Assembly (NCBI GenBank): GCA_021730945.1
Contig: JAKFYH010000025.1
Span: 1-64,000, forward strand
Source: Acidobacteriota bacterium
GTDB lineage: Bacteria; Acidobacteriota; Vicinamibacteria; Vicinamibacterales; UBA2999
DNA length: 64,000 bases
Direction: 5' to 3'
Below the pieces are notes generated by a model. It was not told where the DNA came from. It saw only the letters and a list, made by a program, of their open reading frames with translations, and did not search any database. Positions 83-17,800 of the stretch are shown here, in pieces (position 1 is the first letter of the stretch; the number at the start of each line of letters is the position of its first letter). A program made the translations under genes and the position numbers.

Positions 83-127
83 CGTATCCACCTTTCGGAA
101 GGTGTCCACGAAATCGGGTCAAGCTCA
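1..127. mobile_element. End of an IS3-family insertion sequence, running off the window start
   Basis: The minus strand from 127 downward begins TGAGCTTGACCCG and continues through GTGGACACC, the kind of TG-starting terminal inverted repeat seen on IS3-family elements. About 45 bases inside it an open frame begins that reads like an IS3 OrfA N-terminus. The boundary is set at 127 because the interrupted helicase gene stays in its own reading frame up to 128 and stops at once in the terminal TGA of the element. Only one end is in the window, so target duplication and the second inverted repeat cannot be checked. Confidence 0.7.
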
Positions 128-817
128 AGTTGCCAAGGTCTTGCGAAGGTCGTTGATCTGATGTGTTGTTCTGTTGATTACGATGCCTTCGTCTTTAGTA
201 CGCTTAAAGCCAATACTTGCGAAGTCCGCTTCGTCGTCAATCAGAAGGACGCGTCGTGTCAGGAGCTGTTTGTACTTGGTCGCGAAGATGCTCTTTAATC
301 GGTCCAGGTTATCTGGCTGCTTCTTGGAGACGAAGATCAGCTTCTGATTCAGTTCATACGGCGTCAGGGTTTCGGGGACATTCATGACATCGAAGACCTG
401 CAGCTTGTCGGTTTGAACGAATGTGCTGAAGTCCTTCTTGACCCTAGTAACCGTTTGTTCGCTAAGTGCTTTCGTGCCCTTGGTGAGGACGACCGCAATG
501 TCAAAGCCGTTGTCGAAAGCCAAGGCCGTCACAGCGAGGAAGGTCTTGGTCTTTCCGGACTGGATCTTCCCCAGCAACATCCCGGGATGGTCCGCCGTGG
601 TTGTCGTGTCCAGCAAGGCCTCGACGGTCTCGCGCACGCACGAATGGTCGTCCGTCCTGAACTTGTCTGGATTGCTGGTGAAGGGGACGTAAAACGATCC
701 GTTCAGCTTGAGCTGTGCCACGAATTGACCTCTTGGGGTGTCTGCGGTGAGTCGACTTGAAACCTTACGGTCGCTTCTTGGAAAGCGTGAAGAGTTCACC
801 CGATCGACGTTTGGCAC
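125..817 (-). pseudogene. Z1/DEAD-type helicase, 3' part removed by IS insertion
   Basis: The remaining 230 residues form the first half of a P-loop ATPase of the kind fused to Z1 domains. Walker A is GKIQSGKT (residues 83-90) and Walker B is DDEAD (194-198), followed by an INDLRKTL helix that in this family precedes the TATP motif. Everything after that, including the rest of the helicase core and the Z1 domain, is missing, because the stop TGA is the first codon of the IS3 terminal repeat at 127. The gene overlaps the 3' end of the upstream PLD gene by 53 bases if the ATG at 817 is used, so the two were probably translated together; a later start is possible. Z1 proteins are often found in restriction and phage-defence loci. 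The Z1 assignment rests on the N-terminal half only. Confidence 0.6.
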
Positions 818-2012
818 GAACGGCCTTCCGCCTTAGCACTCTGGGAGTCGAACGTCGCGACACCTCGGATGATTCCGACAGCATAAGAGGCGAGTTGGCA
901 TCCAGCATGCCGGCTGACTCCGATTCCATAAAGTCTCGGCGCTCGAACAAGGCTCTTGGAACAGCTCTCTGAACCAGGGGACGATCCGGACGCGCAAACC
1001 AGTTGCGAAATTCTGGAGGGACGCTCAGGTTTGATTCTTCAACATCGGCCGGCGCCCACGGCTGTGCCGGGGGCAGCTCATAGGTAGCACCGAAGAGCTC
1101 GTCAAGCAGCGTCACCGTCGCCCACGATGAAGCTGCAGAGAGAACATCGGCCGGAGGAAGCGCGGGCCCCTTGATCTCAGGACGAGGAGACCCGTCGTGG
1201 GCTGCGTACACACGCGAATCAAACTCAACCCCGGCACCAGTCAGATGACCGGTATCGCTAATGGTCGCTTCGTACAAGACCTCAATAGCCCCCTCATCGT
1301 CGAGCAGCGAAACGACGATGTTCTTGTCGACGTTCTTGAGGTTCTTGTAGTCCTCCTGAGATCGCCCAAACACAGTCAGTCTGCGGTGGGCATCGAGGAG
1401 GGCACGTGAGCCTCGAAGTTCAAGCACCAAGATTGGCTCCTCGGGAGGGATGCCCTGAAGCCACTTGTAGTAGTCGACCGCATTGGGGTCAAAGGGCTCA
1501 CACTTCAAGCGGACCTGGTCAAGGAACGTTGCTGAGCTCCCGTAGAGTTCAGCATCTCGGTTCAACGTGACCCGGAGAGATGCCTCGACATTCACGCCTG
1601 TCAACGCACGGGCGGTCCAGTTGTGGCTTCCGACCCACAGTTCTGACGCCCCTGCACCATCAAAGAGAAGCATTTTGGGGTGGAGCAGGTGAAGTGGGAC
1701 TTGCGACTTGAGCTCGCCAGGCTGAGGTACCGGGCTCAAGAGGTAGAGAAATACCTTCGCGCCGGCCACGACCATCTCGCACAGTCGGTCGATGTCGGTC
1801 GGCAGATGAATGTCGACGCAGAGATATCCCTCACCGCTGAGACACCGAATGAGGTCAGCGCCAACCCTCTTGTGGTCCACGCACCAGTACGCCACCGCGG
1901 CACGCATGGAGGTGGATTGACGCAGAGAGGATTGCAACCTCCGGACGACCTCGCGGTCGTCAAAGGGCGGAACGAGCTCGATCTCGGATATGCCTGCTAC
2001 GGAACCGCCCAA
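765..2012 (-). CDS. Phospholipase D-like (single HKD) protein, partner of the broken helicase
   Basis: This 415-residue protein has one complete HKD motif in its first third: H111-P-K113, D118, then GSHN at 128-131, within the context WVGSHNWTARAL. PLD-family proteins use two HKD motifs, from one chain or a dimer, to cleave or transfer phosphodiesters through a phosphohistidine. With only one motif here it would act as a dimer, like bacterial Nuc. The C-terminal 250 residues are not recognised; the tail is very basic (RRSTPRVLRRKAVRAKRR), which suits nucleic-acid binding. It is the first gene of a two-gene minus-strand unit with the truncated helicase. PLD-plus-helicase pairs recur in defence loci such as DISARM, but this pair does not match DISARM gene content. 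No signal peptide is visible. Confidence 0.7.
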   Translation of the reverse strand: MGGSVAGISEIELVPPFDDREVVRRLQSSLRQSTSMRAAVAYWCVDHKRVGADLIRCLSGEGYLCVDIHLPTDIDRLCEMVVAGAKVFLYLLSPVPQPGELKSQVPLHLLHPKMLLFDGAGASELWVGSHNWTARALTGVNVEASLRVTLNRDAELYGSSATFLDQVRLKCEPFDPNAVDYYKWLQGIPPEEPILVLELRGSRALLDAHRRLTVFGRSQEDYKNLKNVDKNIVVSLLDDEGAIEVLYEATISDTGHLTGAGVEFDSRVYAAHDGSPRPEIKGPALPPADVLSAASSWATVTLLDELFGATYELPPAQPWAPADVEESNLSVPPEFRNWFARPDRPLVQRAVPRALFERRDFMESESAGMLDANSPLMLSESSEVSRRSTPRVLRRKAVRAKRRSGELFTLSKKRP

Positions 2013-2133
2013 GGGACCTCCCAGTCGCTGCGTGTTGCTTGGTGTCGCATCCTATCTCAGGTGCGGAGCGCGTGTGAAACCGGGGCCTTTAACCGGCTAG
2101 AATGCGCAGCATGTTGACGTCAATGAGGATCGC

Positions 2134-2988
2134 ATGAAGTTGGTCATCCCGAACGAAGCGCAGCTGCGCCGCCCAGAACCGAGGCTGTTTGCCAACGAAG
2201 TTCAGTTGCAGCGGTTTGTCGAGGACCGCGTCTTGCCGAGCTCTGGATTTGAAGTCGTCTCCAGTTCTGAGCAACCAGGGAAGCGACTAGGAAGAATAGA
2301 CACGACGGCGGTGAGTGCGGATGGTATTCCGGTCATTGTCGAGTACAAGCATGACGAAGTCGATGGTGGCGCCATGAGCCAGCTCGAAAAGTATCGACAC
2401 TGGTTGTTGGATCACCGCGAGTTGTTCGAAGAGTCGGCTAAGTCCCAGCTACAAGGCGCCAGCGTCAAGTGGGAGGAGCTGCATAGCGTAGCGGTGGGCT
2501 ACCGATTCCGACTGGACCATCCTCCCATCTCATACGAAGAAGCCGCCGTGACACTCCTGCATTACGGCTATGGCGAAGACAATAACGTTTGGATACGTGA
2601 AGTTGAACGAGGCCTGATCGGTGGCGGACCCCACCCAAAGGTCAGCAAAGACGATTCACTGGACAAGCATCTCGCGAAGACCACGCCTGCGGCAAGACTG
2701 GCCTTTGAGGACCTGAGGTACCGCCTAAAGGGCATTGGCCTTGACGAAAGAATTCACGGCAAGAACCGAGTCAGGTACTGGAGCTCTATGCTGGCGGTGG
2801 AACTGACCTTCACCGACGTTGCCATCCAGTGCTTCTTTGTTGGCGACGGCGTAGAAGACCCTGAAGGGCGAACGCGTGCGACCTCCAAAGGTAGCTGGAA
2901 TTGGACGTGCGGAGTAGCGGGCCAGGCCGACGTTGACTACGCATTTCGAGTGATTCGAGATGCGATCGGGAGGTCGAGTGATGTCTGA
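2134..2988 (+). CDS. PD-(D/E)XK nuclease-like protein with C-terminal DUF5655-like domain
   Basis: The 284-residue protein has a clear PD-(D/E)XK core: D56 in GRIDTT, then E70-Y-K72 at the end of the strand IPVIVEYKH, followed by Q83 on the next helix. The last 100 residues (from about 185) resemble DUF5655, a small domain often joined to endonuclease or transport-like modules in bacteria. The start ATG has a GAGG-type ribosome site about 8 bases upstream. It is transcribed divergently from the PLD gene across a 121-base gap and converges on the next nuclease-like gene. The likely role is a DNA endonuclease of the defence island; substrate and partner are unknown. Confidence 0.65.
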   Translation: MKLVIPNEAQLRRPEPRLFANEVQLQRFVEDRVLPSSGFEVVSSSEQPGKRLGRIDTTAVSADGIPVIVEYKHDEVDGGAMSQLEKYRHWLLDHRELFEESAKSQLQGASVKWEELHSVAVGYRFRLDHPPISYEEAAVTLLHYGYGEDNNVWIREVERGLIGGGPHPKVSKDDSLDKHLAKTTPAARLAFEDLRYRLKGIGLDERIHGKNRVRYWSSMLAVELTFTDVAIQCFFVGDGVEDPEGRTRATSKGSWNWTCGVAGQADVDYAFRVIRDAIGRSSDV

Positions 2989-3847: not shown

Positions 3848-3922
3848 GACGGCGGATTATGCCATCCCTTGCTGAACCGGCGGCATCCGACCTTCCAATC
3901 GAATACACTGCGGGCGATCGCA

Positions 3923-4855
3923 ATGCGTTACTGGTGGGTAAACCAGAATCAGACCTACACCACTGAGGTTCGCGGCAACTTCATGTGGTCGCCGAAGGCC
4001 AACGCTAACGGTGCGCGCAATCCTTTCTATGACTTCATGCGCGAGGTCGCCGTCGGTGACATCGTCTTCTCTTTCTGCGACACGCGAATCAAGGCCTTGG
4101 GGGTGGTCACTGGCCCGGCCCAGACAGCGCCGAAGCCAGACTTTGGCAGTGCCGGCTCCAACTGGTCGAAGGAAGGCTGGTACGTCCCGGTCTACTACTG
4201 CGCGTTCGACTTGCCAATCCGTCCAAAGGACCACATGGCGATCATCGGACCGTTTCTTCCGAGCCGATACTCGCCGCTCCAGTTGAGCGGCGACGGCCTT
4301 CAGGGCGTCTATCTGACCGTCGTCCCGGAGCCTCTCGCGAACGCTCTGATTGGGTTGATGGGCCAGCAGTTCTACGACGCTTTAGCCGTCGTGACCGGAT
4401 TCCCGATTGCGCCAGACCTTGAAGAAGCGGATGACATCACGTTTGGCCCTGACATGGGACCGACGTTCAAAGATCAGCTGATCAAGGCTCGACGCGGCCA
4501 GGGTGTGTTCCGGTCGAACGTGCTGCTCACCGAAGAGTCATGCAGGGTCACGGGAGTCAGCGATCCCAAGCATCTGAGGGCGAGCCACATCAAGCCGTGG
4601 AAGGTAGCGAACGATTCCGAGCGCCTGAGCGGCTTCAATGGGCTCCTTCTCTCGCCGCATATCGACCACTTGTTTGACAAGGGCTACATCAGCTTCTCCA
4701 ATAGTCAGGAGCTGTTAGTCGTGCCGGAGGTGAAAGCCGATTTGTTGGAAAAGTGGGGAATCGACCCGGGTACGCGGGTTGGCGACTTCAATCGAGAGCA
4801 GAAGAGCTTTATGGAGTTCCATCGGATCGAGATCTTCAAGGGGCCGTGGCCGTAG
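3923..4855 (+). CDS. EVE/PUA-like domain fused to HNH endonuclease
   Basis: The start at ATG 3923 is chosen because the EVE-like fold begins at once with MRYWWVNQNQTY; an upstream in-frame ATG would only add 18 unrelated residues. Residues 1 to about 165 follow the EVE/PUA-like pattern (basic WSPK segment, then GDIVFSF and IKALGVV strands), a fold that reads modified bases such as 5-methyl- or hydroxymethyl-cytosine. Residues about 205-262 are an HNH_2-type nuclease: CRVTG, ASHIKPW, then N-G-L-L-L-SPHIDHLFD, ending in the GYISF strand. EVE-HNH fusions are candidate modification-dependent (type IV-like) restriction enzymes that cut modified phage DNA. Length is 310 residues, and the gene stands alone in its own transcript direction before the EEP operon 59 bases downstream. 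Confidence 0.8.
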   Translation: MRYWWVNQNQTYTTEVRGNFMWSPKANANGARNPFYDFMREVAVGDIVFSFCDTRIKALGVVTGPAQTAPKPDFGSAGSNWSKEGWYVPVYYCAFDLPIRPKDHMAIIGPFLPSRYSPLQLSGDGLQGVYLTVVPEPLANALIGLMGQQFYDALAVVTGFPIAPDLEEADDITFGPDMGPTFKDQLIKARRGQGVFRSNVLLTEESCRVTGVSDPKHLRASHIKPWKVANDSERLSGFNGLLLSPHIDHLFDKGYISFSNSQELLVVPEVKADLLEKWGIDPGTRVGDFNREQKSFMEFHRIEIFKGPWP

Positions 4856-4914: not shown

Positions 4915-5751
4915 ATGCGGATCGTAAGCTGGAACATGAATCATTGCCTGCGCTCAATCCCAGCGCGCAAGCTGGCGTGGGAGTACCTGCGGGACGAATT
5001 GAAGGCAGACCTCGCAATTGTGCAAGAGGCATCGCCGCCGAAGGGCCTCATGTCCGTCTACCATCCGATCAACGAGAAGCATCCGCGCTACAGATGGGGT
5101 TCAGCGGTCGTCGCTCTTAGCCCAGATCTGGTTCTCCGCGAGCGTCCTCGAGTGCCACTTGCGGACTGTCAGATGAAACCGGTGGCAGCGAACGAACTGC
5201 CAGACAGTCACCCGGGGGCATGCGCCGTGGCAGATGTACTGGGCGCACATGGGCAGACCCTATTCACGGCGATTAGCCTCTACGGTCAGTGGGAGGTAAT
5301 GGGGAACGGCCAGATGTACTCCTGCGCGCGACTTCACCGAATGATCTCGGACTTGACCGGGGTGCTCGCCACTTCGCGCCGTAAACCGGTTGTCGTAGCC
5401 GGAGACTTGAATCTGACAACGCAGGTAGCGTACGAAAAGCAGACCCAGGCTGAGACCGACGGAGCCGCAGCGGCCTTCGCTCGCTTGCGCGCGTGGGGCC
5501 TGACGGATTGCATAAGCCATACTCGGACAAGTAGGCCACGCCTGCCGAACTGTAGTTGCTCTGACGGCGACAACTGCTCTCATGTCCAGACGTTCCGGCT
5601 TGGCAACCGCACCAGCAGCCGCCCTACACAGCTCGACTACGCCTTCATTTCAAACTCGATGACGCCGAAGCTTAAGGAGTGCCGTGTCGTTCATGACGAA
5701 GCGGCCTGGCAACTGAGCGATCACTGCCCGATCGTTCTTGAACTAACTTGA
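4915..5751 (+). CDS. Endonuclease/exonuclease/phosphatase (EEP) fold protein
   Basis: All the EEP-family catalytic signatures are present in 278 residues: SWNMN at 5-9, QE at 37-38, GDLNLT near 162, LDYAF near 250 and SDH at 268-270 just before the C-terminus. The fold hydrolyses phosphodiesters with Mg2+; members include exonuclease III, APE1 and the 5'-tyrosyl-DNA phosphodiesterase TDP2. An unusual insertion before the LDY motif carries clustered cysteines (NCSCSDGDNC), possibly a metal site or disulfide. There is no signal peptide, so it should act in the cytoplasm. Its stop overlaps the TTG start of the next gene, so it is translationally coupled to the SprT-like protease and belongs to the three-gene operon ending in the HIT-PLD-helicase. 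The exact substrate cannot be read from the sequence. Confidence 0.8.
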   Translation: MRIVSWNMNHCLRSIPARKLAWEYLRDELKADLAIVQEASPPKGLMSVYHPINEKHPRYRWGSAVVALSPDLVLRERPRVPLADCQMKPVAANELPDSHPGACAVADVLGAHGQTLFTAISLYGQWEVMGNGQMYSCARLHRMISDLTGVLATSRRKPVVVAGDLNLTTQVAYEKQTQAETDGAAAAFARLRAWGLTDCISHTRTSRPRLPNCSCSDGDNCSHVQTFRLGNRTSSRPTQLDYAFISNSMTPKLKECRVVHDEAAWQLSDHCPIVLELT

Positions 5752-6278
5752 CCCCCAGCCAACGTAAGAAGTCACCCGTGGCAGCGGCCTCGTCGCCCTT
5801 TCGAACGAAGGCCTATCTGCGCTCCCTGGCCGGAGCATGGGGTGACACTCGGGTCGCCGAGTTGGGAATCCGGATCAATCCGCGCTTGGTGTCAACCGTC
5901 GCCCGTTTGATGGTCCACGAAGGCGTGATCGAGCTAAACCCGACGGTTGCGGCACTCGACTTACGGAACTGGCGGGAGGTCATTTGCCACGAAGCGGCTC
6001 ATTTTGCTGTGTTGCAACGGCGCCGCAAGGTACTGCGACCCCATGGACCGGAATGGGCGGCACTGGTCCAACAGGCTGGGTTCGAGCCCAAAGCCTCCCG
6101 CGTCCGCTGCGGGCAGTCAAAGCAGAGGCGGCCGGCGACGAAGCGGGCCCTTCTGCACACCTGTCCCGTGTGTCACTTCTCGAAGCGCGCGGCTCGGCAG
6201 ATGCCCCGGTGGCGCTGCCCTGAATGCCGGTCGATTGGACTCGACGGACTGCTGAGAGTCGAGCGCAGCCCTGGTTAG
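5748..6278 (+). CDS. SprT-like zinc metalloprotease
   Basis: This 176-residue protein has the SprT/SPRTN core: HEAAH at 81-85 (the HExxH zinc site) and a third histidine in RPHGPEW at about 99, which in SprT proteins is the HGxxW zinc ligand. The C-terminal part has a zinc ribbon, CPVC near 150 and CPEC about 20 residues later, as in E. coli SprT. Eukaryotic SPRTN digests proteins crosslinked to DNA; bacterial SprT roles are poorly known. The TTG start overlaps the EEP stop (TTGA), and the HIT-PLD-helicase begins 7 bases after its stop, so all three should be made together. The N-terminal 17 residues are basic and disordered-looking. Confidence 0.8.
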   Translation: MTPSQRKKSPVAAASSPFRTKAYLRSLAGAWGDTRVAELGIRINPRLVSTVARLMVHEGVIELNPTVAALDLRNWREVICHEAAHFAVLQRRRKVLRPHGPEWAALVQQAGFEPKASRVRCGQSKQRRPATKRALLHTCPVCHFSKRAARQMPRWRCPECRSIGLDGLLRVERSPG

Positions 6279-6285
6279 TGTTCAT

Positions 6286-9200
6286 ATGAATGATTCGCCC
6301 TGCCCCTTTTGCGATCCCGCGACTGACCGAATCATCTTCGAGACCGGCTTAGTCTTCGGCGTGTGGGATGCCTTTGCCGTTTCGGACGGTCATGCGCTCG
6401 TGGTGACACGCCGCCATGTGGCGAGCTGGTTCGATGCCACGCCAGCTGAGCGAGCTGCCCTGACGGAGGGCATCGCCACGGCCCGCGAGGCTGTGCAACG
6501 TACTCACGCACCTGCCGGCTTCAACATTGGCATCAATGTCGGCGAGGCAGCGGGCCAAACGATTCCACACCTCCACGTCCACGTCATTCCCCGGTATTCC
6601 GGTGACGTTTCGGATCCCCGTGGCGGCGTTCGCCATGTCATTCCAGGGCGCGGCAACTACTTGCTCGCCCCGACTTTGTGGGGTGGCTCAGATAGGCGCC
6701 TGGTCACAGGTGGCGATGATCCACTCTTACCTCACATCGTCTCTGCGTTGGCCACCGCCGACCGTGCCGACATCGTCGTCAGTTTCGTGCTGGAGAGTGG
6801 CGTTGACAGGGTCTTTGAGCACCTGAGAGACCTGCTGGACCGTGGCGGGCAACTCCGAATCCTGACCGGCGACTACCTCGGCATTAGCGAGCCTGACGCG
6901 TTAATGCGTCTACTTGACCTCGAAGGCAACGTGATTCGCCGCGTTTACGAGACGGGCTCCCCAGTTGCTCCTGGGCAGGCGCGCATGGTGCGTTCTTTTC
7001 ACCCCAAGGCGTACATCTTTACGAACGGAGCTTGGGGCGCGGCGTTTGTGGGCAGCTCGAACCTGAGCGCGTCCGCCCTGACCAGCGCCGTGGAATGGAA
7101 TTACCGGGTGGTGCCCTCTAGCGACCATGGTGGATTTGCGGAAATTGTTGGCTCGTTTGAAAGCCTGTTCCGCCACCCGTCGACCAAGCAGCTGGATGCC
7201 GATTGGATTGAGCAGTATCGGACCAGGCGAGCGATTCAGCGGCCAATTGTTGAAGCCGTAGATGTGGCACCCGAGGCGCCAAAGCCGCCGGTTGAACCGA
7301 ACGAAGTGCAAGTTGCAGCTCTGGAGGCTCTGCAGGCGACACGTGCCAAGGGCAACCACGCCGGCCTAGTCGTGCTTGCGACTGGGTTAGGCAAGACCTG
7401 GCTCTCAGCCTTCGATTCGAATCGACCTGAGTTCAAGCGGGTGCTCTTCGTCGCGCATCGGGAGGAGATTCTCAACCAGGCCCACGCCACGTTCAGACGG
7501 ATTCGACCCGGAGCCAACCTTGGGCACTTTACGGGCGAAAAGAAGGAGGGGACCGCGGATGTCTTGTTCGCCTCGATTCAGACGCTCAGCCGACGCGAGC
7601 ACCTGGAACAGTTCGCTCCAGAATCCTTCGACTACATCGTCATCGACGAGTTCCACCACGCCTCTGCTGCCTCTTACCGGAAGCTGATCAGCTACTTCAA
7701 CCCCACGTTCCTGCTGGGCCTTACGGCGACGCCTGAACGCAGTGACGGTGGAGACCTCTTGGCGCTGTGTCAGCAGAACTTGGTCTATCGGTGTGACCTG
7801 GTTGAAGGCGTTCGGCGAGCGCTGCTATCGCCGTTTTCGTACTTCGGCGTACCAGACGAAGTGGACTACGTGAATATTCCCTGGCGCGGCACGCGCTTTG
7901 ACGAGGAAGCGCTGACCACCGCCGTGGCGACACAACGTCGGGCGGCAAATGCCCTTGAGCAGTTTCGCTTACGCGCCGCCAAGCGAGCACTGGGATTCTG
8001 CGTCTCGATGAGGCACGCGGATTTCATGGCCTCATTCTTCTCGGCCCAAGGCGTTCGCGCGGTGGCTGTGCACTCCGGACCCACGTCTGCGCCACGCGCC
8101 TTGTCGCTCGAGCAACTCGAAAAGGGCGAGCTCGACATCGTCTTTGCCGTGGACATGTTCAACGAGGGTGTCGACCTGCCGACCCTGGATACGGTGATGA
8201 TGCTTCGTCCCACAGAGTCGAAGATCCTGTGGCTTCAGCAGTTCGGTCGGGGTCTACGACTCTCGCCTGGAAAAGAGCGGCTCACTGTTATCGACTACAT
8301 CGGCAACCATCGGGTCTTCCTGTTGAAGCCTCAGACGCTGTTCAACCTTCCGCCGGGCGATCGGGAGGTGTACAACCTGATTGAGCGGCTGCAGAGCCAC
8401 ACCCAAGAGCTGCCGCCGGGCTGTGAAGTCACCTACGAACTCGAAGCTATCAACATCCTCAAGTCGCTGCTCCGTCGAAGCGCCACCCAAGACGAAGCGC
8501 TTCAACGGTATTACGAGGACTTCCGAACTGTCCATGGCGTCCGCCCGACCGCGGTGGAAGCCTACCACGATGGTTACAACCCGAGGTCTGTTCGCGAGCG
8601 TTCGGGCTCGTGGACGCAGTTCGTCGCCGCCATGGGAGACCTCACGCCGGAACAACGGCGAGCGCTAGAACTCTACAAAGGCTTCATCACATCTCTCGAT
8701 GCGACTGAGATGGTAAAGAGTTACAAGATGCTCGTCTTGTTAGCGATGATTAGCGCCGATCGATTTCCCGGTGCTATCGCCATCGACGACCTGGCGGGCG
8801 AGGTCGAGCGGCTGGCGACGCGAACCACGCTGGCAGGCGCAGACTTGGGGCAGGCTCTGGGTGACAGGCGGGCGCTCATTCGATTGCTCGAGCAGAACCC
8901 AATCGCCGCATGGTCGGGTGGGCGGGGCACCGGCGGTGTTTCATACTTCGCCTACGAGAACGGCACCTTCAAGACATCGTTCGGCGATGGGCAGGATGTG
9001 GCTGGCGCGGTTCAAGAGATTGCTCGTGAACTGGCGGAGTGGCGACTGGCTGAATACCTGGATCGGGCTCATCGAGACAAAGCCGACTTTACGACCCTCA
9101 AGGTGAGCCATTCAAGCGGCAGTCCCATCCTCTTCCTTCCGACAGGCGACGAGCGCGCAGATCTCCCCAATGGCTGGACGCCTCTCCAGATCGACGGCGA

Positions 9201-9843
9201 GACCTACCAGGCCAATTTCGTGAAGATTGCCGTGAATGTCGTGCGCAAAGATGGAGACGACGCGAATCAGTTGTCGCGAATCTTGCGCGGCTGGTTCGGA
9301 GCGGACGCGGGCGCACCGGGGACCGGGCACGCGGTCTCGCTTCAGCTGAAGGGTTCCGAATGGCACTTGAGCCCGCTCGGCCGGCGACGGGGCGAGCTCA
9401 AACTCTGGCAGAGCTACTCGCGCGAAGAGATTCCCGGGCTCTTTGGCTTGGAGTTCTCGACCGCGATCTGGAACGCCGGCTTTGTCCAAAGGCCTGGCCA
9501 CCTCTTCCTGCTTGTCACTCTCGACAAGTCTGGCCATGCGGAGGACTTCAAGTATCACGACCGGTTCATCAGTCCGACGGAGTTCGAGTGGCAGAGCCAG
9601 AACCGAACGTCACAAGATAGCCCTGTTGGTAGAGCGATCCGAGACCATGCAGCGGAGGGCTTCGTCGTGCATCTGTTCGTGCGCGGTGAGAAGAAGCGTC
9701 CCGGTGGTGGTTCAGCGCCATTCATTTACTGCGGTGACGTGCGCTTCGTTTCATGGGAGGGCGACAAGCCAATTACCGTGAAATGGCAGCTTTCCGCTCT
9801 TGTCCCGGACAGTATCTGGAAGACGGTTCGCAATGAACACTGA
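6286..9843 (+). CDS. HIT-PLD-SF2 helicase-DUF3427 multidomain protein
   Basis: This 1185-residue protein has four modules. Residues 1-125 are a HIT domain with a CPFC zinc pair at 6-9 and the histidine triad HLHVHVIP (95-102). Residues about 150-300 are PLD-like, with HPK at 239-241 and GSSN at 256-259, but the usual aspartate after the lysine is a threonine. Residues about 335-690 are an SF2 helicase: ATGLGKT at 365-371, DEFHH at 454-458, TATPER at 480-485 and the QQFGRGLR motif VI near 660. The remainder to the C-terminus is the DUF3427 region common to PLD-helicases of this type. HIT proteins hydrolyse nucleotidyl bonds (aprataxin removes 5'-AMP from DNA), PLD proteins include 3'-tyrosyl-DNA phosphodiesterase, and the helicase would supply ATP-driven translocation. 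It is the last gene of the EEP-SprT operon. Confidence 0.85.
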   Translation: MNDSPCPFCDPATDRIIFETGLVFGVWDAFAVSDGHALVVTRRHVASWFDATPAERAALTEGIATAREAVQRTHAPAGFNIGINVGEAAGQTIPHLHVHVIPRYSGDVSDPRGGVRHVIPGRGNYLLAPTLWGGSDRRLVTGGDDPLLPHIVSALATADRADIVVSFVLESGVDRVFEHLRDLLDRGGQLRILTGDYLGISEPDALMRLLDLEGNVIRRVYETGSPVAPGQARMVRSFHPKAYIFTNGAWGAAFVGSSNLSASALTSAVEWNYRVVPSSDHGGFAEIVGSFESLFRHPSTKQLDADWIEQYRTRRAIQRPIVEAVDVAPEAPKPPVEPNEVQVAALEALQATRAKGNHAGLVVLATGLGKTWLSAFDSNRPEFKRVLFVAHREEILNQAHATFRRIRPGANLGHFTGEKKEGTADVLFASIQTLSRREHLEQFAPESFDYIVIDEFHHASAASYRKLISYFNPTFLLGLTATPERSDGGDLLALCQQNLVYRCDLVEGVRRALLSPFSYFGVPDEVDYVNIPWRGTRFDEEALTTAVATQRRAANALEQFRLRAAKRALGFCVSMRHADFMASFFSAQGVRAVAVHSGPTSAPRALSLEQLEKGELDIVFAVDMFNEGVDLPTLDTVMMLRPTESKILWLQQFGRGLRLSPGKERLTVIDYIGNHRVFLLKPQTLFNLPPGDREVYNLIERLQSHTQELPPGCEVTYELEAINILKSLLRRSATQDEALQRYYEDFRTVHGVRPTAVEAYHDGYNPRSVRERSGSWTQFVAAMGDLTPEQRRALELYKGFITSLDATEMVKSYKMLVLLAMISADRFPGAIAIDDLAGEVERLATRTTLAGADLGQALGDRRALIRLLEQNPIAAWSGGRGTGGVSYFAYENGTFKTSFGDGQDVAGAVQEIARELAEWRLAEYLDRAHRDKADFTTLKVSHSSGSPILFLPTGDERADLPNGWTPLQIDGETYQANFVKIAVNVVRKDGDDANQLSRILRGWFGADAGAPGTGHAVSLQLKGSEWHLSPLGRRRGELKLWQSYSREEIPGLFGLEFSTAIWNAGFVQRPGHLFLLVTLDKSGHAEDFKYHDRFISPTEFEWQSQNRTSQDSPVGRAIRDHAAEGFVVHLFVRGEKKRPGGGSAPFIYCGDVRFVSWEGDKPITVKWQLSALVPDSIWKTVRNEH

Positions 9844-9893: not shown

Positions 9894-10946
9894 TCATTCT
9901 TCGCCAACTTCCAAGTCGTCCCAATCAAGGATGTGCGCGATCGCGGGCCGGCCTTCGGTTCGCCGCTCTTCGTCGGATCTCGGATCATTGAGCGACGCAA
10001 CCCACTGGGCTTTGCCAGTCATCCAGAGGGCGATGTTCGTTGCCAGGCCCTTGCGATAGAAAATGTCCGGGAAAAATGCATTGAACGCCACCGTGTCATT
10101 TTTTCCGTCCGGAGGAACACACCAGCCGCCGTGCAAACAGCTCATCAGCGATACCCCTTTCGCTTCTATCAGGTTGAGTAGGGCGGCATTCTCTGCTGGA
10201 GTTCGGTCGAACGGAGGCGACCAGAGCTTGAGTGTCACATGCAGTCCACTGCCAACGTTGGGGTGCCGTTTCTGCGTGTCGAATTGAAGCAGAGAACTGA
10301 AGTCACGATAAGGAAACTCGACGTTGGCGCCCGTGTCGTCACCGGTCGCAAGCAGACTGGCCCGCCGTAGGATTGCCAGCGCATCCGTCATTGCCTCCCC
10401 GCTCCATTGAGACGGCTCGTCGCTCTGTCGCGCACGGATGCTATTCACCATTGTCGTCAGGTCGTCCGGAGTAGGCCTAGGCCCCGAGGTCGGGTGTCCC
10501 GTCGCCGCAGCGTGACCGCGAAGTAAAGAGGCGATGCCGGGGCCCATGTGTTCGGCTTCCGCCACCTGAATCGCTGCGACGAGCGCGAAGTGGTCGGGCA
10601 ACCATGAAAGGACAGCCTCATGGACAATTGCGCTGGCGATCAAACTCACAACACCATCGTTCCCTAGGACTACTGCGCTTACGGTGGCGGCTGCAGCGTT
10701 GATTTCGCTCAGCACTTGGTAGGAAGAGTCCTCCAAGGCAACGCCCGTCGCGATGGGCGTTCGCGCGATCAAGCGAGAGACGAGGATTCCATTCGACATA
10801 GTGGCTTCAGACGCCACTAGTTCTTGGCAGTACCGGCCACTCCACCACCTGAAACGGCGACTGTCGCGAATGCTCCACTGTTCATCAATGAGCATTCGTG
10901 TGAAGATCGCGTCGAGCGCCGTGGGCCCTGGATTCACGTCGGTCAT
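9894..10946 (-). CDS. Uncharacterised 350-residue protein
   Basis: I recognise no family. The protein is acidic to neutral, has no signal peptide, and shows no P-loop or obvious nuclease motif. The middle (about 60-200) is alanine-rich and helical. The C-terminal third contains a strand-rich section with HVTLKLWSPPFDRTPAENAALL and a cluster around CLHGGWCVPPDGKND that looks like a structured loop. It converges on the 3' end of the HIT-PLD-helicase (50 bases between stops) and is divergent from the RecF/SMC-like ATPase. Its base composition matches the less GC-rich island rather than the next genes. The start ATG at 10946 has no competing upstream in-frame start in view. Confidence 0.55.
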   Translation of the reverse strand: MTDVNPGPTALDAIFTRMLIDEQWSIRDSRRFRWWSGRYCQELVASEATMSNGILVSRLIARTPIATGVALEDSSYQVLSEINAAAATVSAVVLGNDGVVSLIASAIVHEAVLSWLPDHFALVAAIQVAEAEHMGPGIASLLRGHAAATGHPTSGPRPTPDDLTTMVNSIRARQSDEPSQWSGEAMTDALAILRRASLLATGDDTGANVEFPYRDFSSLLQFDTQKRHPNVGSGLHVTLKLWSPPFDRTPAENAALLNLIEAKGVSLMSCLHGGWCVPPDGKNDTVAFNAFFPDIFYRKGLATNIALWMTGKAQWVASLNDPRSDEERRTEGRPAIAHILDWDDLEVGEE

Positions 10947-11071
10947 TGACGGATTCTAATCTTCTAGAAGCGTGCAGCAACCAGCGATGTCGCCGGTCGC
11001 TCGTCAGCCAAATCGGTCCGGCACCCACGGAGCCAGAAGTCTCGCCCAAGGGTTACTATGGCGCACTGACC

Positions 11072-13528
11072 ATGAACAGTGACCTGCGACGCCTTGTCCA
11101 CGACCGTCTCGTTTCCGAGGATCTGGTCCAGAAGAACTGGAGCAACCTCGTCCTCGCCGCATGCGATGGCGAAGACGCCTTGGCCGGCGTTCTCAGCAAC
11201 ACCAAGGCGGCACCTCCGGACACCGAGAAATCGACGGTAACAAAGGGCACAGGCGCATACCTCACCGCCCTCGCCGTCGAAGGCTTCCGCGGCATCGGCC
11301 CCAGGCAAACCCTCACGCTGACCGCCGCCCCCGGCCTGACCATCATCGTCGGGCGAAACGGCTCCGGGAAGTCCAGCTTCGCCGAGGCGCTGGAAGTGCT
11401 GCTCACCAGCGACAACAAGCGCTGGGCGAAGGGTCGCTCAAAGGTCTGGCAAGACGGTTGGCGCAATCTGCATCAGGACAAGACCGCAGCGATCGAAGCC
11501 AAGCTGGATCTGGAGGGCGGCGGACAGGCGACGGTCAGCTGCTCCTGGGATGCTGGCGGCGACCTTAGTGAGCAGAAGACTGGCGCGCAGATTAAAGGGA
11601 AGCCGAAGACCACGCTGCAGGCAATGGGATGGACGGATGCGCTTGAGTCGTATCGCCCGTTCCTCTCCTACAACGAACTGGGCTCCATGCTGGACGAAGG
11701 CCCCTCGAAACTCTACGACGCGCTGTCGCTGGTGCTGGGCCTCGAGGACCTCGTCACGGCACAGGCAGCGCTCGCAGAGTGTCGTCTCGCCCGGCAGAAA
11801 CCCCTCGACATCTCCGATGCGGCGCGCGAGCAGTTCGTCGAGCAACTGAAGACGCTGATCGCTGAAGAGCCCGACGATCGCGCATCGGCGTGCCTGGATG
11901 CCCTGACGACGAAGAACTGGGGACTGGATGCGGTAGAGAAGATAGCGAGCGCGGGCGCAGTCCCGGCCGCGACCCAGGACGTGACCGTGCTGACGCGCGC
12001 GGTGGCGCTGGATGCCGGCGATCCCGCACTGGTCGCCGCCGCCGTGACCGCGCTCAGGGCCGCCGATGCGAAGCTGAAGGCCGTTGCCGGCAGCGATGCC
12101 GATGGCGCGCGGCAGACGGCATCCCTGCTCGAAGCCGCCCTCAACTTCCACGCCGGCCACGGCGACACCGACTGCCCGGTGTGCGGCGGTAAGCCTGGTC
12201 TGAACGCCAAGTGGGCCAAGCAGAGCCGCGCGCAGATCGATCGCCTGAAGATCGCCGCGGCGGCGAGCGACGATGCGCATAGGGGAGCGGAGGGCGCGCG
12301 CCGGAAGGCGATAGAGATGATGCCGGCGCCATCGAAGCTGCTGGCACAGCTCTTCGAGATTGGCGTCGAAGGACTCGACACCGCGCGGAAGCAGTGGGAC
12401 GCCTGGCACGCCGGCGCATCCATAAAAGACCTGACTGAACTCGCAAATCACCTGGAGAGCCATCACGAAGCGTTCGCCGATGCGCTCGATGACCTGAAGA
12501 CGGCCGCGGCGGCGGAGCTGAAGCGGCGGGAAGATCGCTGGCGGCCGATCGCCCAGTCCATCGCCGGCTGGATCGACCTTGCTCGCGACGCGCGCGCGAA
12601 GGCGGAAGACATCCCGCGCATCAAGGACGCCGAGAAGTGGCTGAAGGACGCATCCGCCGACATCCGCAACCAGCGCTTCGCGCCCATCGCCGACAAGGCC
12701 ATGAAGACGTGGGAGCACCTGCGCCAGCAGAGCAACGTCACGCTGGGCAAGATCGAACTGGTGGGCACGGGCACCAAGCGCAAGGTGTCGCTCGACGTCA
12801 CCGTTGACGGCGTCGCCGGTGCCGCCCTTGGCGTGATGAGCCAGGGCGAACTGCACTCGCTGGCGCTCAGCCTGTTCCTGCCACGCGCCACCCTGCCCGA
12901 AAGCCCGTTCCGCTTCGTGGTGATAGACGACCCGGTGCAATCCATGGACCCCTCGCGCGTGGATGGCCTGGCCAGGGCGCTGGAAGAGACCGCGCGCACG
13001 CGCCAGGTGATCGTGTTCACCCACGACGAACGCCTGCCCGAAGCGGTCCGCCGCCTCGGCATCGAAAGCCGCATGTTCATGGTGACCCGTCGTCCTGGGT
13101 CCGTGGTGGAGGTGAGGAAGTCGCTCGACCCCGTCCGCGCGCATATTGAGGATGCGCTGGCGCTGGTGCACACCACCGACCTGCCGAATCCCGTGCTGCG
13201 ACGCACCGTGCCCGGATTCTGCCGGGCGGCACTTGAATCCGCGCTGATCGGCGTGATCCGCAAGCGGCAACTCCTGGCCGGAAAGACCCACGGCGAAGTG
13301 GACGAAGCTCTGGCCAAGGGCGGGAAGCTGACGCCACTCGCCGCCCTCGCGTTCTTCGACGACCGTGAGCGAGGCAGCGAGGTAATGGCCCGCCTGAACA
13401 AATACGGCGGCTGGGCCGGCGATGCGTTCAAGCAGTGCAACGAGGGCGCGCATAAGGAATATGCCGGCGACCTGAAGCAGTTGATCAACGACAGCGAGAA
13501 GCTCGCGGAGAGGATTCAGGCGCTCTGA
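11072..13528 (+). CDS. RecF/SMC-like AAA ATPase with a CPVC zinc motif
   Basis: The 818-residue protein has an ABC/SMC-type ATPase: Walker A GRNGSGKS at 94-101, and a Walker B strand FVVIDDPVQSMDP near 620 followed by the VIVFTHDERL switch strand. Between them lies a helical region with one CPVCGG motif near residue 367, like half of a Rad50 zinc hook, so two molecules could pair through zinc. Residues about 690-818 are an extra helical domain absent from Rad50. The ATG at 11072 is chosen over a TTG at 10946 because the 42 residues between look non-coding and would overlap the divergent gene start. It shares one base (TGATG) with the next small gene, implying coupling. Such ATPases act in DNA repair or in defence systems; which one here is open. 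Confidence 0.7.
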   Translation: MNSDLRRLVHDRLVSEDLVQKNWSNLVLAACDGEDALAGVLSNTKAAPPDTEKSTVTKGTGAYLTALAVEGFRGIGPRQTLTLTAAPGLTIIVGRNGSGKSSFAEALEVLLTSDNKRWAKGRSKVWQDGWRNLHQDKTAAIEAKLDLEGGGQATVSCSWDAGGDLSEQKTGAQIKGKPKTTLQAMGWTDALESYRPFLSYNELGSMLDEGPSKLYDALSLVLGLEDLVTAQAALAECRLARQKPLDISDAAREQFVEQLKTLIAEEPDDRASACLDALTTKNWGLDAVEKIASAGAVPAATQDVTVLTRAVALDAGDPALVAAAVTALRAADAKLKAVAGSDADGARQTASLLEAALNFHAGHGDTDCPVCGGKPGLNAKWAKQSRAQIDRLKIAAAASDDAHRGAEGARRKAIEMMPAPSKLLAQLFEIGVEGLDTARKQWDAWHAGASIKDLTELANHLESHHEAFADALDDLKTAAAAELKRREDRWRPIAQSIAGWIDLARDARAKAEDIPRIKDAEKWLKDASADIRNQRFAPIADKAMKTWEHLRQQSNVTLGKIELVGTGTKRKVSLDVTVDGVAGAALGVMSQGELHSLALSLFLPRATLPESPFRFVVIDDPVQSMDPSRVDGLARALEETARTRQVIVFTHDERLPEAVRRLGIESRMFMVTRRPGSVVEVRKSLDPVRAHIEDALALVHTTDLPNPVLRRTVPGFCRAALESALIGVIRKRQLLAGKTHGEVDEALAKGGKLTPLAALAFFDDRERGSEVMARLNKYGGWAGDAFKQCNEGAHKEYAGDLKQLINDSEKLAERIQAL

Positions 13529-14812: not shown

Positions 14813-17800
14813 ATGCGCATCCTCGACGACCAACTCGTCCTCTCTCCCTCCGACCTCGCCAACTTTCTCACTTGCCGCCACCGCGCCGGACTCGATCTGG
14901 CCGCCGCGCGCAAGGTGTTCGACAAGCCCCGCTACGAGGATCCCTACGCCGCCATGTTGAGTCAGCACGGCCAGGATCACGAGCAGGCCTATGTGGAATC
15001 CCTCCGCGCCCGCGGTCTCGCCATCGTCAATGCCAAGCCCAACCAGAAGACGACGGCGGAGGAGTCGACGCGGCTGACGCTGGAGGCCATGCGAGCAGGC
15101 ACGCAGGTTATTGTGCAGGCAAGACTCGCAAAGCCGGCGGAGGGCCGGCCGGCCGAACTGGCAATGGCGGGCTACGCCGACGTGCTGCTGCGGGTGGAGC
15201 AGCCGAGCGATCTGGGCGGCTGGTCGTACGAGGTGCAAGACACCAAGCTGGCGAAAGAAACCAAGGGCGGCACCATCCTGCAGCTCTCCGCCTATTCCGA
15301 CATGGTGGGCCGCATTCAGGGAAGACGGCCGGAGCACTTCTACGTGGTGACGCCGGTCGCCACCGAACGCTACCGCGTTGAAGACTACGCCGCCTATTAC
15401 CGGATGGTCCTCGCCACGCTTCGCGCTGAAGTGGCGAAGGGCCACGAGACGCTGCTCGAGACCTACTACCCCGAGCCGGTGGAGGCCTGCCAGCTGTGCG
15501 CGTGGGAAGGGCGATGCGAGACGCGGCGGCGCAAGGATGATCACCTCTCCTACATCGCGGGGGCGGGACGATCGCACCGGGTTGAGCTCACCGCCCAGGG
15601 CATCACTACGTTGACGGCGGCGGCGCGGATGGCGGTGCCGGTGGAATTCAAGCCCTCGCGCGGCGCAAGGGAGACCTACAACCTCATCGGCGATCAGGCG
15701 CGCGTGCAGCATCTGCAGCGCAGTGAAGGGAGGCCGATCGTCGAGATGCTGCCGATTGAAGAAGGAGCAGGGTTGCGACGGCTGCCTGCTCCTTCACCGC
15801 GAGATCTGTTCCTGGATCTTGAGGGGGCTCGCTTCGCTCGCCAGGACGGGCGCGAATATCTGTTTGGTGCTTATGGTGCGTACGGTGCCTATGGTGCCAA
15901 GGGGGTGAGTGCCACGGGTGCCGGGTACCGTGCCTGGTGGGCGGTGGACGATGCGCAGGAGAAAGCCGCGTTTGAGGAGGTAATGGACCTCATCACCGAG
16001 GCGTGCGAGGCCGATCCCGGCATGCACGTGTATCACTTCAATCACTACGAGCCCACCGCGTTCAAGAAGCTGGCGGGCCGCTACGTGACCCGCGTCGAGG
16101 CGCTTGATGCGTTGCTGCGCGCCGAACGTTTCGTGGACCTCTACCCGATCGTCCGCCAGGCCGTGCGAGCCGGCGTCGAGAGTTACTCGATCAAGAAGCT
16201 CGAGCAATACACCGGATACACGCGACAGGTGGAGCTGAAAAGCGTTCACGATCCGCTGATGGCGGTGGAACTGGCGCTTGATGCGAAAGCGCCCACGCTC
16301 ATCACCACCGAGATCCGCGATGCCGTGCAGGGTTACAACGAGGACGATTGTCGTTCGACGCAGTTCCTGCGCGACTGGCTCGAGCGGCTGAGGACCGAGG
16401 CGATCGCCGGTGGCGCAGATGTGCCGCGCCCGACAGTGGAGGTGAAGGCGCCGCAGGAGAAGACGGTCGCGCTGCAGCAGCGCGCGGAAGCCGTGCGCGC
16501 ACGCATCCTGGCGTCCATTCCGACAGAGGCCGCGACCGCTGGGCACGCGGACCACGCGCAGTGGCTGCTTGCCTATCTGGTCGACTGGCACCGGCGCGAA
16601 TACAACGCCGGGTGGTGGGAATACTTCCGGTTGCGCGATCTGCCCGAAGAAGACCTGTTCGACGAGCGCAAGGCGGTCGCCGGGTTGCGGCATGTGGTGC
16701 ATGTGGGTCCATTCCTCGGCAAGAAGGGCAGGGCCACCAGCTCTATCGTCGACCGCTACTCGTATTCGCCGCAGGAAGTCGAGATTGAAGAGGGCGACAC
16801 CCTCAAGCTGCAGATCGACGAGACGTTCGGCGAGGTGATGGCCCACGATCGCTCAGAGCGCACGCTCGATGTGAAGAAGGGCAAGGCGGCGGCCGCGAAC
16901 CATCCGTCCGCGGCATTTGCCTTCGATGCGTATCAGACCGATGTGCAACAAGAGGCCGTGATCCAGATGGCGGAGTCGGTCGGCCCCGATCGGCTGGAGA
17001 CCTGCGGCATGCAGTTGCTGCACGGGCACGCACCTCGCCTGTTCAGGCAACCGTTCGAGCGCAAGGCCGGCGAGTCGGAACAGGACTTCACCATCCGCAT
17101 CGTCACCGATCTCGATCGCACAACGCTCGCCATCCAGGGACCTCCAGGCGCCGGCAAGACCTACATCGGCGCGCAGATGATCCTGGCGCTGGTGCGGGCC
17201 GGCAAGAAGGTGGGCGTGACGGCGCACAGCCACAAGGTGATCCACAACCTGCTCGAGGACGTGCTGAAGCAGTCGCGTCCTGAGGACGATGCGCGCGTGG
17301 CGGCCAAGGGGGATGAGGACGACGCGAGCGGATTGATCCGGATCATTAAGAAGAACGAAGACGCGCTCGCCGAGGTGACCGGTGGAGAAGTGAACGTGCT
17401 TGGCGGCACGTCGTGGCTGTGGTCGCGGCCGGAGTTTGCCGGCGCGGTCGATGTGTTGTTCGTGGACGAGGCCGGACAGGTGTCGCTGGCCAACGCGCTG
17501 GCGGTGTCGCACGCGGCCAACAGCGTGGTGCTGCTGGGCGATCCTCGGCAATTGGCGCAGCCGTCGAAGGGCAGTCATCCTGACGGTGTCGGCGTGTCGG
17601 CGCTGCAGCACGTGTTGGGCGCCGCCGAGACCATGCTCGCCGAACGCGGCATCTTCCTGCCCGTCACCTGGCGCATGTCGCCCGCGCTCACCGCGTTCAC
17701 GTCGGAGCTGTTCTACGAGGGGAAGCTCACGGCCAAGTCCGGCCTGGAGCGCCAGGTGCTTGCCGGTATCGATGATCTGGCCGGATCGCGATTCTGGATG

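What the first reader, a model, noticed from the sequence alone, without database searches (positions are those of the whole stretch)
4915..9843. EEP + SprT + HIT-PLD-helicase operon: candidate system for DNA-protein crosslinks or blocked DNA ends
Three tightly coupled genes (TTGA overlap, then 7 bases) encode an EEP phosphoesterase, a SprT-like protease and a HIT-PLD-SF2 helicase-DUF3427 fusion. In eukaryotes these same folds are used by TDP2, SPRTN, aprataxin and TDP1, which strip proteins, tyrosyl links or AMP from DNA ends. Seeing four of these catalytic folds with a helicase in one operon suggests one machine that clears adducts, or a defence system against phages whose DNA ends carry a covalent protein. 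The functional link is inference; the domains and coupling are seen in the sequence.
Basis: partly seen in the sequence, partly recalled or inferred. Interest (0 to 1): 0.9.

Follow-up and report, generated by a model that had tools for sequence, protein, structure and literature searches.

The report
Restriction enzyme paired with SprT protease
Next to a DNA-shredding bacterial restriction enzyme with an extra nucleotide-hydrolase domain sits a gene for a protease related to human Spartan, and the same pair turns up in eight bacterial phyla, which suggests that removing protein from DNA is built into this defence enzyme.

Summary
The three coupled genes are real, but the reading changes. (1) The large protein is not an aprataxin/TDP1 analogue: it is a SauUSI-related PLD nuclease + SF2 translocase + SRA-type reader, a probable modification-dependent (type IV) restriction enzyme, with an N-terminal HIT domain. 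(2) The recurrent partner is SprT, not EEP. Among the closest relatives with readable upstream DNA, SprT lies upstream in 24 of 47 HIT-fused enzymes, against 1 of 25 without a recognised HIT, and that one has a decayed HIT. The pairs span eight phyla by record title. All 26 SprT proteins keep HExxH, a third His and four Cys. SprT and enzyme trees agree beyond shuffled labels (quartets 0.52 against 0.34). EEP directly before SprT was seen only in the window (0 of 19 other readable pairs); it is ExoIII/APE1-like, not TDP2-like. Likely function: shredding of modified foreign DNA, with a dedicated protease that removes stalled restriction complexes (brake) or protein roadblocks. The protease's target is inference. 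No paper in the held library holds both 'SauUSI' and 'SprT'. New variant of a known kind.

The parts
4915..5751 (+). EEP (ExoIII/APE1-type) phosphoesterase, 278 aa; window-specific first gene of the operon
   Evidence: Pfam PF03372 7.8e-6; invariant N7, E38, D164, N166, D241, D269, H270 in 5 aligned EEPs; nearest solved structures ExoA/ExoIII/APE1
5748..6278 (+). SprT metalloprotease with C-terminal zinc ribbon, 176 aa; the conserved partner
   Evidence: Pfam PF10263 9.3e-11; H81 E82 H85 H99 W103 and C139 C142 C157 C160 are the invariant columns in 26 operon SprTs
6286..9843 (+). HIT-PLD-SF2-coupler-SRA-type protein, 1185 aa: SauUSI-related restriction translocase-nuclease
   Evidence: Pfam, PADLOC mREase_IV 3.4e-116, SauUSI structure sequence 7clg 2.6e-96
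6286..6663 (+). HIT domain (residues 1-126), triad H95/H97/H99
   Evidence: PF01230 2.5e-21; triad kept in 53, 53 and 52 of 53 fused HITs
6694..7275 (+). PLD nuclease domain (about residues 137-330), H239-x-K241 and GSSN 256-259
   Evidence: PF13091; alignment to SauUSI; conserved in at least 96% of 81 relatives
7294..8319 (+). SF2 ATPase/translocase core (about residues 337-678)
   Evidence: PF04851 and PF00271; motifs GLGKT, DEFHH, TATP, QQFGRGLR conserved
9385..9843 (+). C-terminal target-recognition domain (residues 1034-1185), SRA-type by profile; D1092 and W1102 pair with SauUSI pocket residues D858 and W868
   Evidence: A2 profile to 7clg 791-918, 1.9e-14; residue pairs read; DUF3427
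3869..4855 (+). Neighbour: HNH_2 endonuclease, same strand, 59 bases before the EEP; same family beside this enzyme in three other genomes
   Evidence: PF13391 8.6e-13; clustering and Pfam of L059, L061

Best explanation
A SauUSI-related, probably modification-dependent (type IV) restriction module. The SRA-type C-terminal domain is expected to read a modified base, the SF2 motor to translocate, and the PLD nuclease (HxK, dimeric by analogy) to shred the DNA. The fused HIT domain is a nucleotide hydrolase accessory. The co-inherited SprT is a DNA-associated metalloprotease that acts on protein sitting on the DNA being processed. I commit, narrowly, to a brake or reset: it removes restriction complexes stalled or trapped on DNA, host DNA above all, as ClpXP does for EcoKI. 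Shown here: domains, intact catalytic residues, recurrence and co-inheritance of SprT with the HIT-fused enzyme. Inferred: modified-DNA specificity, proteolysis, its target, and the role of HIT. EEP is a lineage-specific addition that may trim ends.
For: SauUSI similarity over PLD + SF2 (2.6e-96) and over the SRA domain (profile 1.9e-14) with D858 and W868 counterparts kept (W invariant, D in at least 90% of 39 rows); PADLOC type IV models. SprT upstream in 24 of 47 HIT-fused against 1 of 25 others, Fisher 5.2e-5, eight phyla by title; strong members of this SprT family were found in only 6 of 396 Acidobacteriota genomes. SprT catalytic and zinc residues invariant in 26. Trees congruent: quartets 0.524 against 0.336 (sd 0.046), 0 of 1000, 17 diverse pairs; the window's five-member group appears in both trees (96 and 91 support). 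Brake: ClpXP degrades EcoKI HsdR in its translocating state (PMC11109961, abstract and passages), and one divergent relative without SprT carries a Peptidase_S24 domain inside the enzyme (2.7e-7).
Against: Nothing shows which protein SprT cuts. 23 of 47 HIT-fused enzymes have no SprT, so it is not essential. Genomes with SprT do not carry more C5-methyltransferase genes (7 of 26 against 11 of 22, p 0.14), which a brake against self-restriction might predict; carriers as a whole (18 of 48) do not differ from the Acidobacteriota baseline (71 of 199), so no avoidance of self-methylation is seen. The SauUSI HxK(x)4E motif lacks its E here (T246). SauUSI Y831, M829, F841, I842 are F, A, L, V. A distance (Mantel) test on 15 diverse pairs shows no correlation (r -0.11, p 0.72). 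Four of the six strong SprT genes in Acidobacteriota lie beside unrelated genes.
Confidence: 0.55

Rival explanations
1. Same restriction module, but SprT works forward: it digests phage or plasmid proteins bound or crosslinked to the invading DNA (roadblocks, terminal proteins), so that the SF2 motor can travel and the PLD nuclease can shred.
For: SPRTN likeness; the zinc ribbon is conserved; SauUSI works by translocation along DNA (PMC7913695 abstract and sections 24-25). Recalled: SPRTN-type proteases act on DNA-bound proteins.
Against: SauUSI is described as shredding by pile-up against a stationary molecule (PMC7913695 abstract), so obstacles need not hinder it. The S24-carrying relative points to regulation instead, as a single case.
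Confidence: 0.3
2. One reading: EEP + SprT + HIT + PLD + helicase form one adduct-clearing repair machine (TDP2/SPRTN/aprataxin/TDP1-like).
For: All domains are present, catalytic residues intact, genes coupled in the window.
Against: Nearest families are SauUSI, Ap4A phosphorylase/Fhit and ExoIII/APE1; EEP absent from 19 of 19 other readable pairs; restriction-type neighbours in 5 of 11 SprT loci where one to three neighbours were given to Pfam.
Confidence: 0.07
3. SprT is an unrelated housekeeping gene that sits beside the enzyme by chance or by hitch-hiking.
For: The same SprT family also occurs beside unrelated genes (histidine kinase, TonB, integrase) in four Acidobacteriota genomes; half of the HIT-fused enzymes lack it.
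Against: 24 of 47 occurrences, spacing from -4 to +9 bases in 15 of 26 pairs, eight phyla by title, clustered on the enzyme tree (10 changes against 21.1 shuffled, 0 of 500), and congruent quartets.
Confidence: 0.05

Closest known systems
SauUSI (Staphylococcus aureus type IV restriction enzyme, PDB 7clg)
   Different: N-terminal HIT domain; SprT partner instead of the MutT/NUDIX gene seen beside the S. aureus and Hymenobacter copies; E of HxK(x)4E replaced by T; pocket Tyr replaced by Phe.
SPRTN / SprT-like metalloproteases
   Same: HExxH, third His, SprT fold by profile; C-terminal four-Cys ribbon.
   Different: Encoded directly upstream of a restriction enzyme; no proteolysis shown.
EcoKI restriction alleviation by ClpXP
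   Same: Would be a protease controlling a translocating restriction motor (PMC11109961, passages).
   Different: Here the protease is SprT, is not an AAA+ protease, and is encoded with the enzyme; control itself is inference.
ExoIII / ExoA / APE1 family (for the EEP)
   Same: Catalytic residues and best solved relatives.
   Different: About 30% identical to its nearest found relatives in 396 genomes; AP-site or 3' activity untested.

Membership tests
SauUSI-type type IV restriction enzyme | PLD nuclease with HxK | tested here: met
   H239, K241, GSSN 256-259 conserved in at least 96% of 81 relatives; aligned to SauUSI H119/K121
SauUSI-type type IV restriction enzyme | Full H(X)K(X)4E motif as written for SauUSI | tested here: not met
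   T246 in place of E (motif from PMC7913695 section 24). For this reason I call it SauUSI-related, not a SauUSI orthologue
SauUSI-type type IV restriction enzyme | SF2 ATPase joined by a coupler to a C-terminal SRA-type reader | tested here: met
   by sequence only
SauUSI-type type IV restriction enzyme | Modified-cytosine pocket (D858, W868, Y831, hydrophobics) | tested here: inconclusive
   D and W kept; Y831 is F1066, M829 is A1064, F841/I842 are L/V (read)
SauUSI-type type IV restriction enzyme | ATP-dependent cleavage of m5C/hm5C DNA | not testable with these tools
   Biochemistry needed
SprT/SPRTN metalloprotease | HExxH plus a third His | tested here: met
   H81 E82 H85 H99 invariant in 26 sequences
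SprT/SPRTN metalloprotease | DNA-dependent proteolysis | not testable with these tools
   Assay needed
TDP2 | Nearest EEP relatives are TDP2 chains | tested here: not met
   No chain named TDP2 among 42 (E up to 1) or 19 (E up to 0.01) matches; ExoA/ExoIII/APE1 instead. That TDP2 chains are in the PDB is recalled
Aprataxin | Nearest HIT relatives are aprataxin chains | tested here: not met
   HIT matches are Ap4A phosphorylase, Fhit, Hint and HIT family chains; none named aprataxin among 40 at E up to 0.001
TDP1 | Two HKD/HKN halves in one chain, TDP1 as nearest relative | tested here: not met
   One PLDc_2 stretch; nearest is SauUSI, no TDP1 named

The most novel reading that the evidence does not exclude
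A crosslink-aware restriction system. It recognises modified foreign DNA that carries covalently bound protein (terminal proteins, crosslinks): SprT digests the protein, the SF2-PLD motor shreds the DNA, HIT hydrolyses nucleotidyl-peptide or other nucleotide remnants, and in this lineage EEP trims the ends. It would be the first bacterial defence with a dedicated DNA-protein-crosslink protease.
Probability: 0.15. Interest if true: 0.88.

Novelty: new variant of a known kind. Interest (0 to 1): 0.6.

Why it matters
If true, proteolysis on DNA is an evolved, dedicated part of a restriction system in many phyla. It would link Spartan-type proteases to phage defence, make SprT function in bacteria testable through a clear phenotype (restriction or self-toxicity), and show how a methyl-dependent shredding enzyme without a cognate methylase is kept safe or made effective.

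Tried and rejected
EEP as a conserved partner: tested by phmmer, by motif and by an EEP profile on the fetched loci. Apart from the window, EEP hits in enzyme loci were L035 (same strand, 324 bases downstream of a divergent enzyme) and L057, L094, L100 (opposite strand, 2.9, 3.9 and 7.6 kb beyond the enzyme). EEP homologues of the window protein in 396 Acidobacteriota genomes: 7 genomes including its own, the others distant; three neighbourhoods were read. One (L005) has a convergent SprT-like gene of another subfamily 46 bases away; I treat it as unexplained. None in plasmid or phage records; none in viral contigs.

Mobile copies: 718 plasmid records match the enzyme, none over 80% of its length; 21 viral contigs hold distant PLD-helicase relatives at 29-42% identity; no relative of the SprT profile in viral contigs.

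Self-methylation as a clue to a brake: C5-methyltransferases in carriers, uninformative. Mantel test: r 0.71 (p 1e-4) on all 25 pairs, but r -0.11 (p 0.72) on 15 diverse pairs, so I rely on the quartet test and say so. Nudix replacing HIT: a motif scan of the 80 loci, five further loci and the first 20 kb of the window found only three Nudix genes near enzymes, all HIT-fused, so replacement is not shown in this set. Structure comparison of EEP with TDP2/APE1 could not be run.

Literature: eight searches. Papers seen: PMC7913695 abstract and sections 24-25; PMC3874153, PMC7641849, PMC12839542 and PMC11109961 passages (abstract of the last within them); all others in search listings only.
Full report
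Observation. Pfam confirms EEP, SprT, HIT, PLD, SF2 and DUF3427, all above the curated cut-offs, though EEP (26.2 against 24.5 bits) and PLDc_2 (28.1 against 27) only just. The EEP keeps the residues shared by the aligned EEPs (N7, E38, D164, N166, D241, D269, H270).

What the large protein is. PADLOC scores it as a type IV restriction enzyme (mREase_IV, 3.4e-116). Against solved structures the best match is 7clg, SauUSI, over residues 137-758 (2.6e-96). A profile of 39 C-terminal regions matches SauUSI residues 791-918, E 1.9e-14, which is nearly all inside the SRA reader (806-953 by PMC7913695 section 25). Reading the pairs off the alignment, pocket residues D858 and W868 correspond to D1092 and W1102 (W invariant, D in at least 90% of 39 rows); Y831, M829, F841 and I842 correspond to F, A, L and V. 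The PLD motif has H239-x-K241 and GSSN, but T246 where SauUSI has E126. It is therefore SauUSI-related and probably modification-dependent, but not shown to be so. The HIT domain is nearest to Ap4A phosphorylases and Fhit; its H95/H97/H99 triad is kept in 53, 53 and 52 of 53 fused relatives.

Recurrence. With two further loci from whole genomes (L032, L035), and after dropping three that duplicate members of the 80 (L033, L034, L037), 72 of 82 had at least 600 bases upstream or a visible SprT. SprT lies upstream on the same strand in 24 of 47 HIT-fused enzymes and in 1 of 25 without a recognised HIT (Fisher p 5.2e-5). That one, L104, has a HIT-like N-terminus without the triad. The ten loci with too little upstream DNA were not counted, and the window is not in these counts. 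Including the window, 15 of 26 pairs are spaced from -4 to +9 bases; nine of the other 11 overlap further, most of them because the longest open frame was taken, and L119 (+157) and L128 (+725, HIT in a separate frame) are looser. By record title the pairs come from Acidobacteriota, Planctomycetota, Verrucomicrobiota, Myxococcota ('Deltaproteobacteria'), Pseudomonadota, Gemmatimonadota, Binatota and candidate UBP9; most are metagenome-assembled genomes. In a clustering of neighbours within 6 kb SprT is the largest recurrent family (22 loci; the next has 8). These are the nearest relatives of the window's enzyme, so the frequency does not describe all SauUSI relatives.

Control for chance. The SprT profile scores 179-209 bits in only 6 of 396 Acidobacteriota genomes and at most 70 bits elsewhere (41 genomes match in all; the tool scored at most 8 candidates per genome). 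Two of the six are beside a HIT-PLD-helicase (the window's genome and G278); the other four lie beside a histidine kinase, a TonB protein, an integrase together with a 981-aa protein that ends in an EEP domain, and an unrecognised gene. The family thus also exists outside the operon.

Co-inheritance. On the enzyme tree (81 rows) SprT needs 10 changes against 21.1 for shuffled labels, 0 of 500 as low. In the SprT tree the operon genes need 4 changes against 19.3 (0 of 500); the 32 'other' rows include four identical pairs, and most deep branches are weak. The window's group (window, L032, L053, L059, L119) is found in both trees (support 96 and 91). Quartet agreement is 0.62 on 24 pairs and 0.524 on 17 diverse pairs, against 0.336 (sd 0.046), 0 of 1000 permutations. 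A Mantel test gives r 0.71 on 25 pairs but -0.11 (p 0.72) on 15 diverse pairs, so deep distances carry no signal.

SprT itself. In 26 sequences the invariant columns are H81, E82, H85, H99, W103, C139, C142, C157 and C160, and nothing else: an intact metalloprotease site and zinc ribbon. The profile's best solved relative is human SPRTN (3e-7); the window sequence alone finds none.

HIT. Enzymes first counted as HIT-less carry, in 19 of 20 tested N-termini, a weak match to the fused-HIT profile (E at most 0.0014 in a set of 20 sequences; L131 0.021), with the HxHxH triad lost or reduced to remnants. The HIT domain thus decayed in a mainly alphaproteobacterial branch that has no SprT. A MutT/NUDIX gene precedes the SauUSI-like genes of an S. 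aureus plasmid and of Hymenobacter and stands 3 bases before SprT in L087; for all three the best NCBIfam model is a pyrimidine (d)NTP diphosphatase, below its cut-off. A figure legend in PMC7641849 also notes MutT homologues beside SauUSI homologues. A nucleotide hydrolase therefore seems a recurring accessory of this enzyme family; its substrate is unknown.

EEP. No other pair has EEP before SprT (0 of 19 with at least 900 bases readable before SprT). L035, a divergent enzyme without SprT, has an EEP gene 324 bases downstream on the same strand (PF03372 5.9e-15). The window genome has three other EEP genes. EEP is best seen as a local addition.

Mechanism. Two uses of a protease fit. As a brake it would strip stalled or trapped restriction complexes; the precedent is ClpXP degrading HsdR in its translocating state (PMC11109961 passages), and L035 carries a Peptidase_S24 domain inside the enzyme (2.7e-7, above cut-off; no other enzyme showed the motif). 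As a forward tool it would remove roadblocks or terminal proteins. I give the brake a small edge; the methyltransferase test does not support it (7 of 26 SprT genomes against 11 of 22 without, p 0.14).

Context. Of 11 SprT loci for which one to three neighbours were given to Pfam, five have a restriction-type or nuclease neighbour above cut-off (L053 NaeI, L057 HNH, L059 HNH_2, L061 HNH_2 and Mrr_cat, L090 NucS_C at 24.3 against 24 bits) and six do not (L060, L062, L064, L072, L088, L094). In the window, the first 18 kb hold defence-type genes; further right the genes tested look like ordinary chromosome.

Novelty. No paper in the held library contains both SauUSI and SprT, and the other searches brought up no description of this pair (listings only). 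Subscription papers and preprint servers are largely outside that library. I file it as a new variant of type IV restriction.

Noticed in passing
L035:6269-10576 (-): Divergent HIT-PLD-SF2 enzyme without SprT that carries a Peptidase_S24 (LexA-type) domain at residues 1071-1180 and has an EEP gene 324 bases downstream.
   Followed up: partly
L085, L091, L095, L103, L109, L110 and related loci, enzyme N-termini: HIT-derived N-termini that have lost the HxHxH triad, mainly in Alphaproteobacteria: a catalytic domain turned vestigial or structural.
   Followed up: partly
window 3869-4855; L059:4958-5941; L061:6868-7776; L082 (same contig as L037): One HNH_2 endonuclease family lies beside this enzyme in four genomes; its N-terminus in the window looks EVE-like to me (recalled, no Pfam match).
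   Followed up: partly
L087:8631-9020: Nudix gene 3 bases before SprT, giving a Nudix-SprT-HIT-PLD-helicase order.
   Followed up: partly
window 125-2012 (-), 2134-2988 (+), 10946-13528 (+), 14813-18286 (+): Other defence-type genes: a Z1/MzaC-like fragment near the contig edge, a ZacB-like PLD protein, a PDC-S18/NucS-like protein, a MAD3/LmuB-like SMC ATPase, and a RNase_H_2 + AAA_12 helicase.
   Followed up: no
L005:1204-2082 (+) and 2128-2961 (-): A 27%-identical EEP relative lies 46 bases from a convergent SprT-like gene of another subfamily, without the restriction enzyme in the 3.6 kb held.
   Followed up: no
L174:5334-8279 (-) and 8350-8901 (-): A strong SprT-family gene followed 71 bases later by a 981-aa protein whose C-terminus is an EEP domain.
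   Followed up: no
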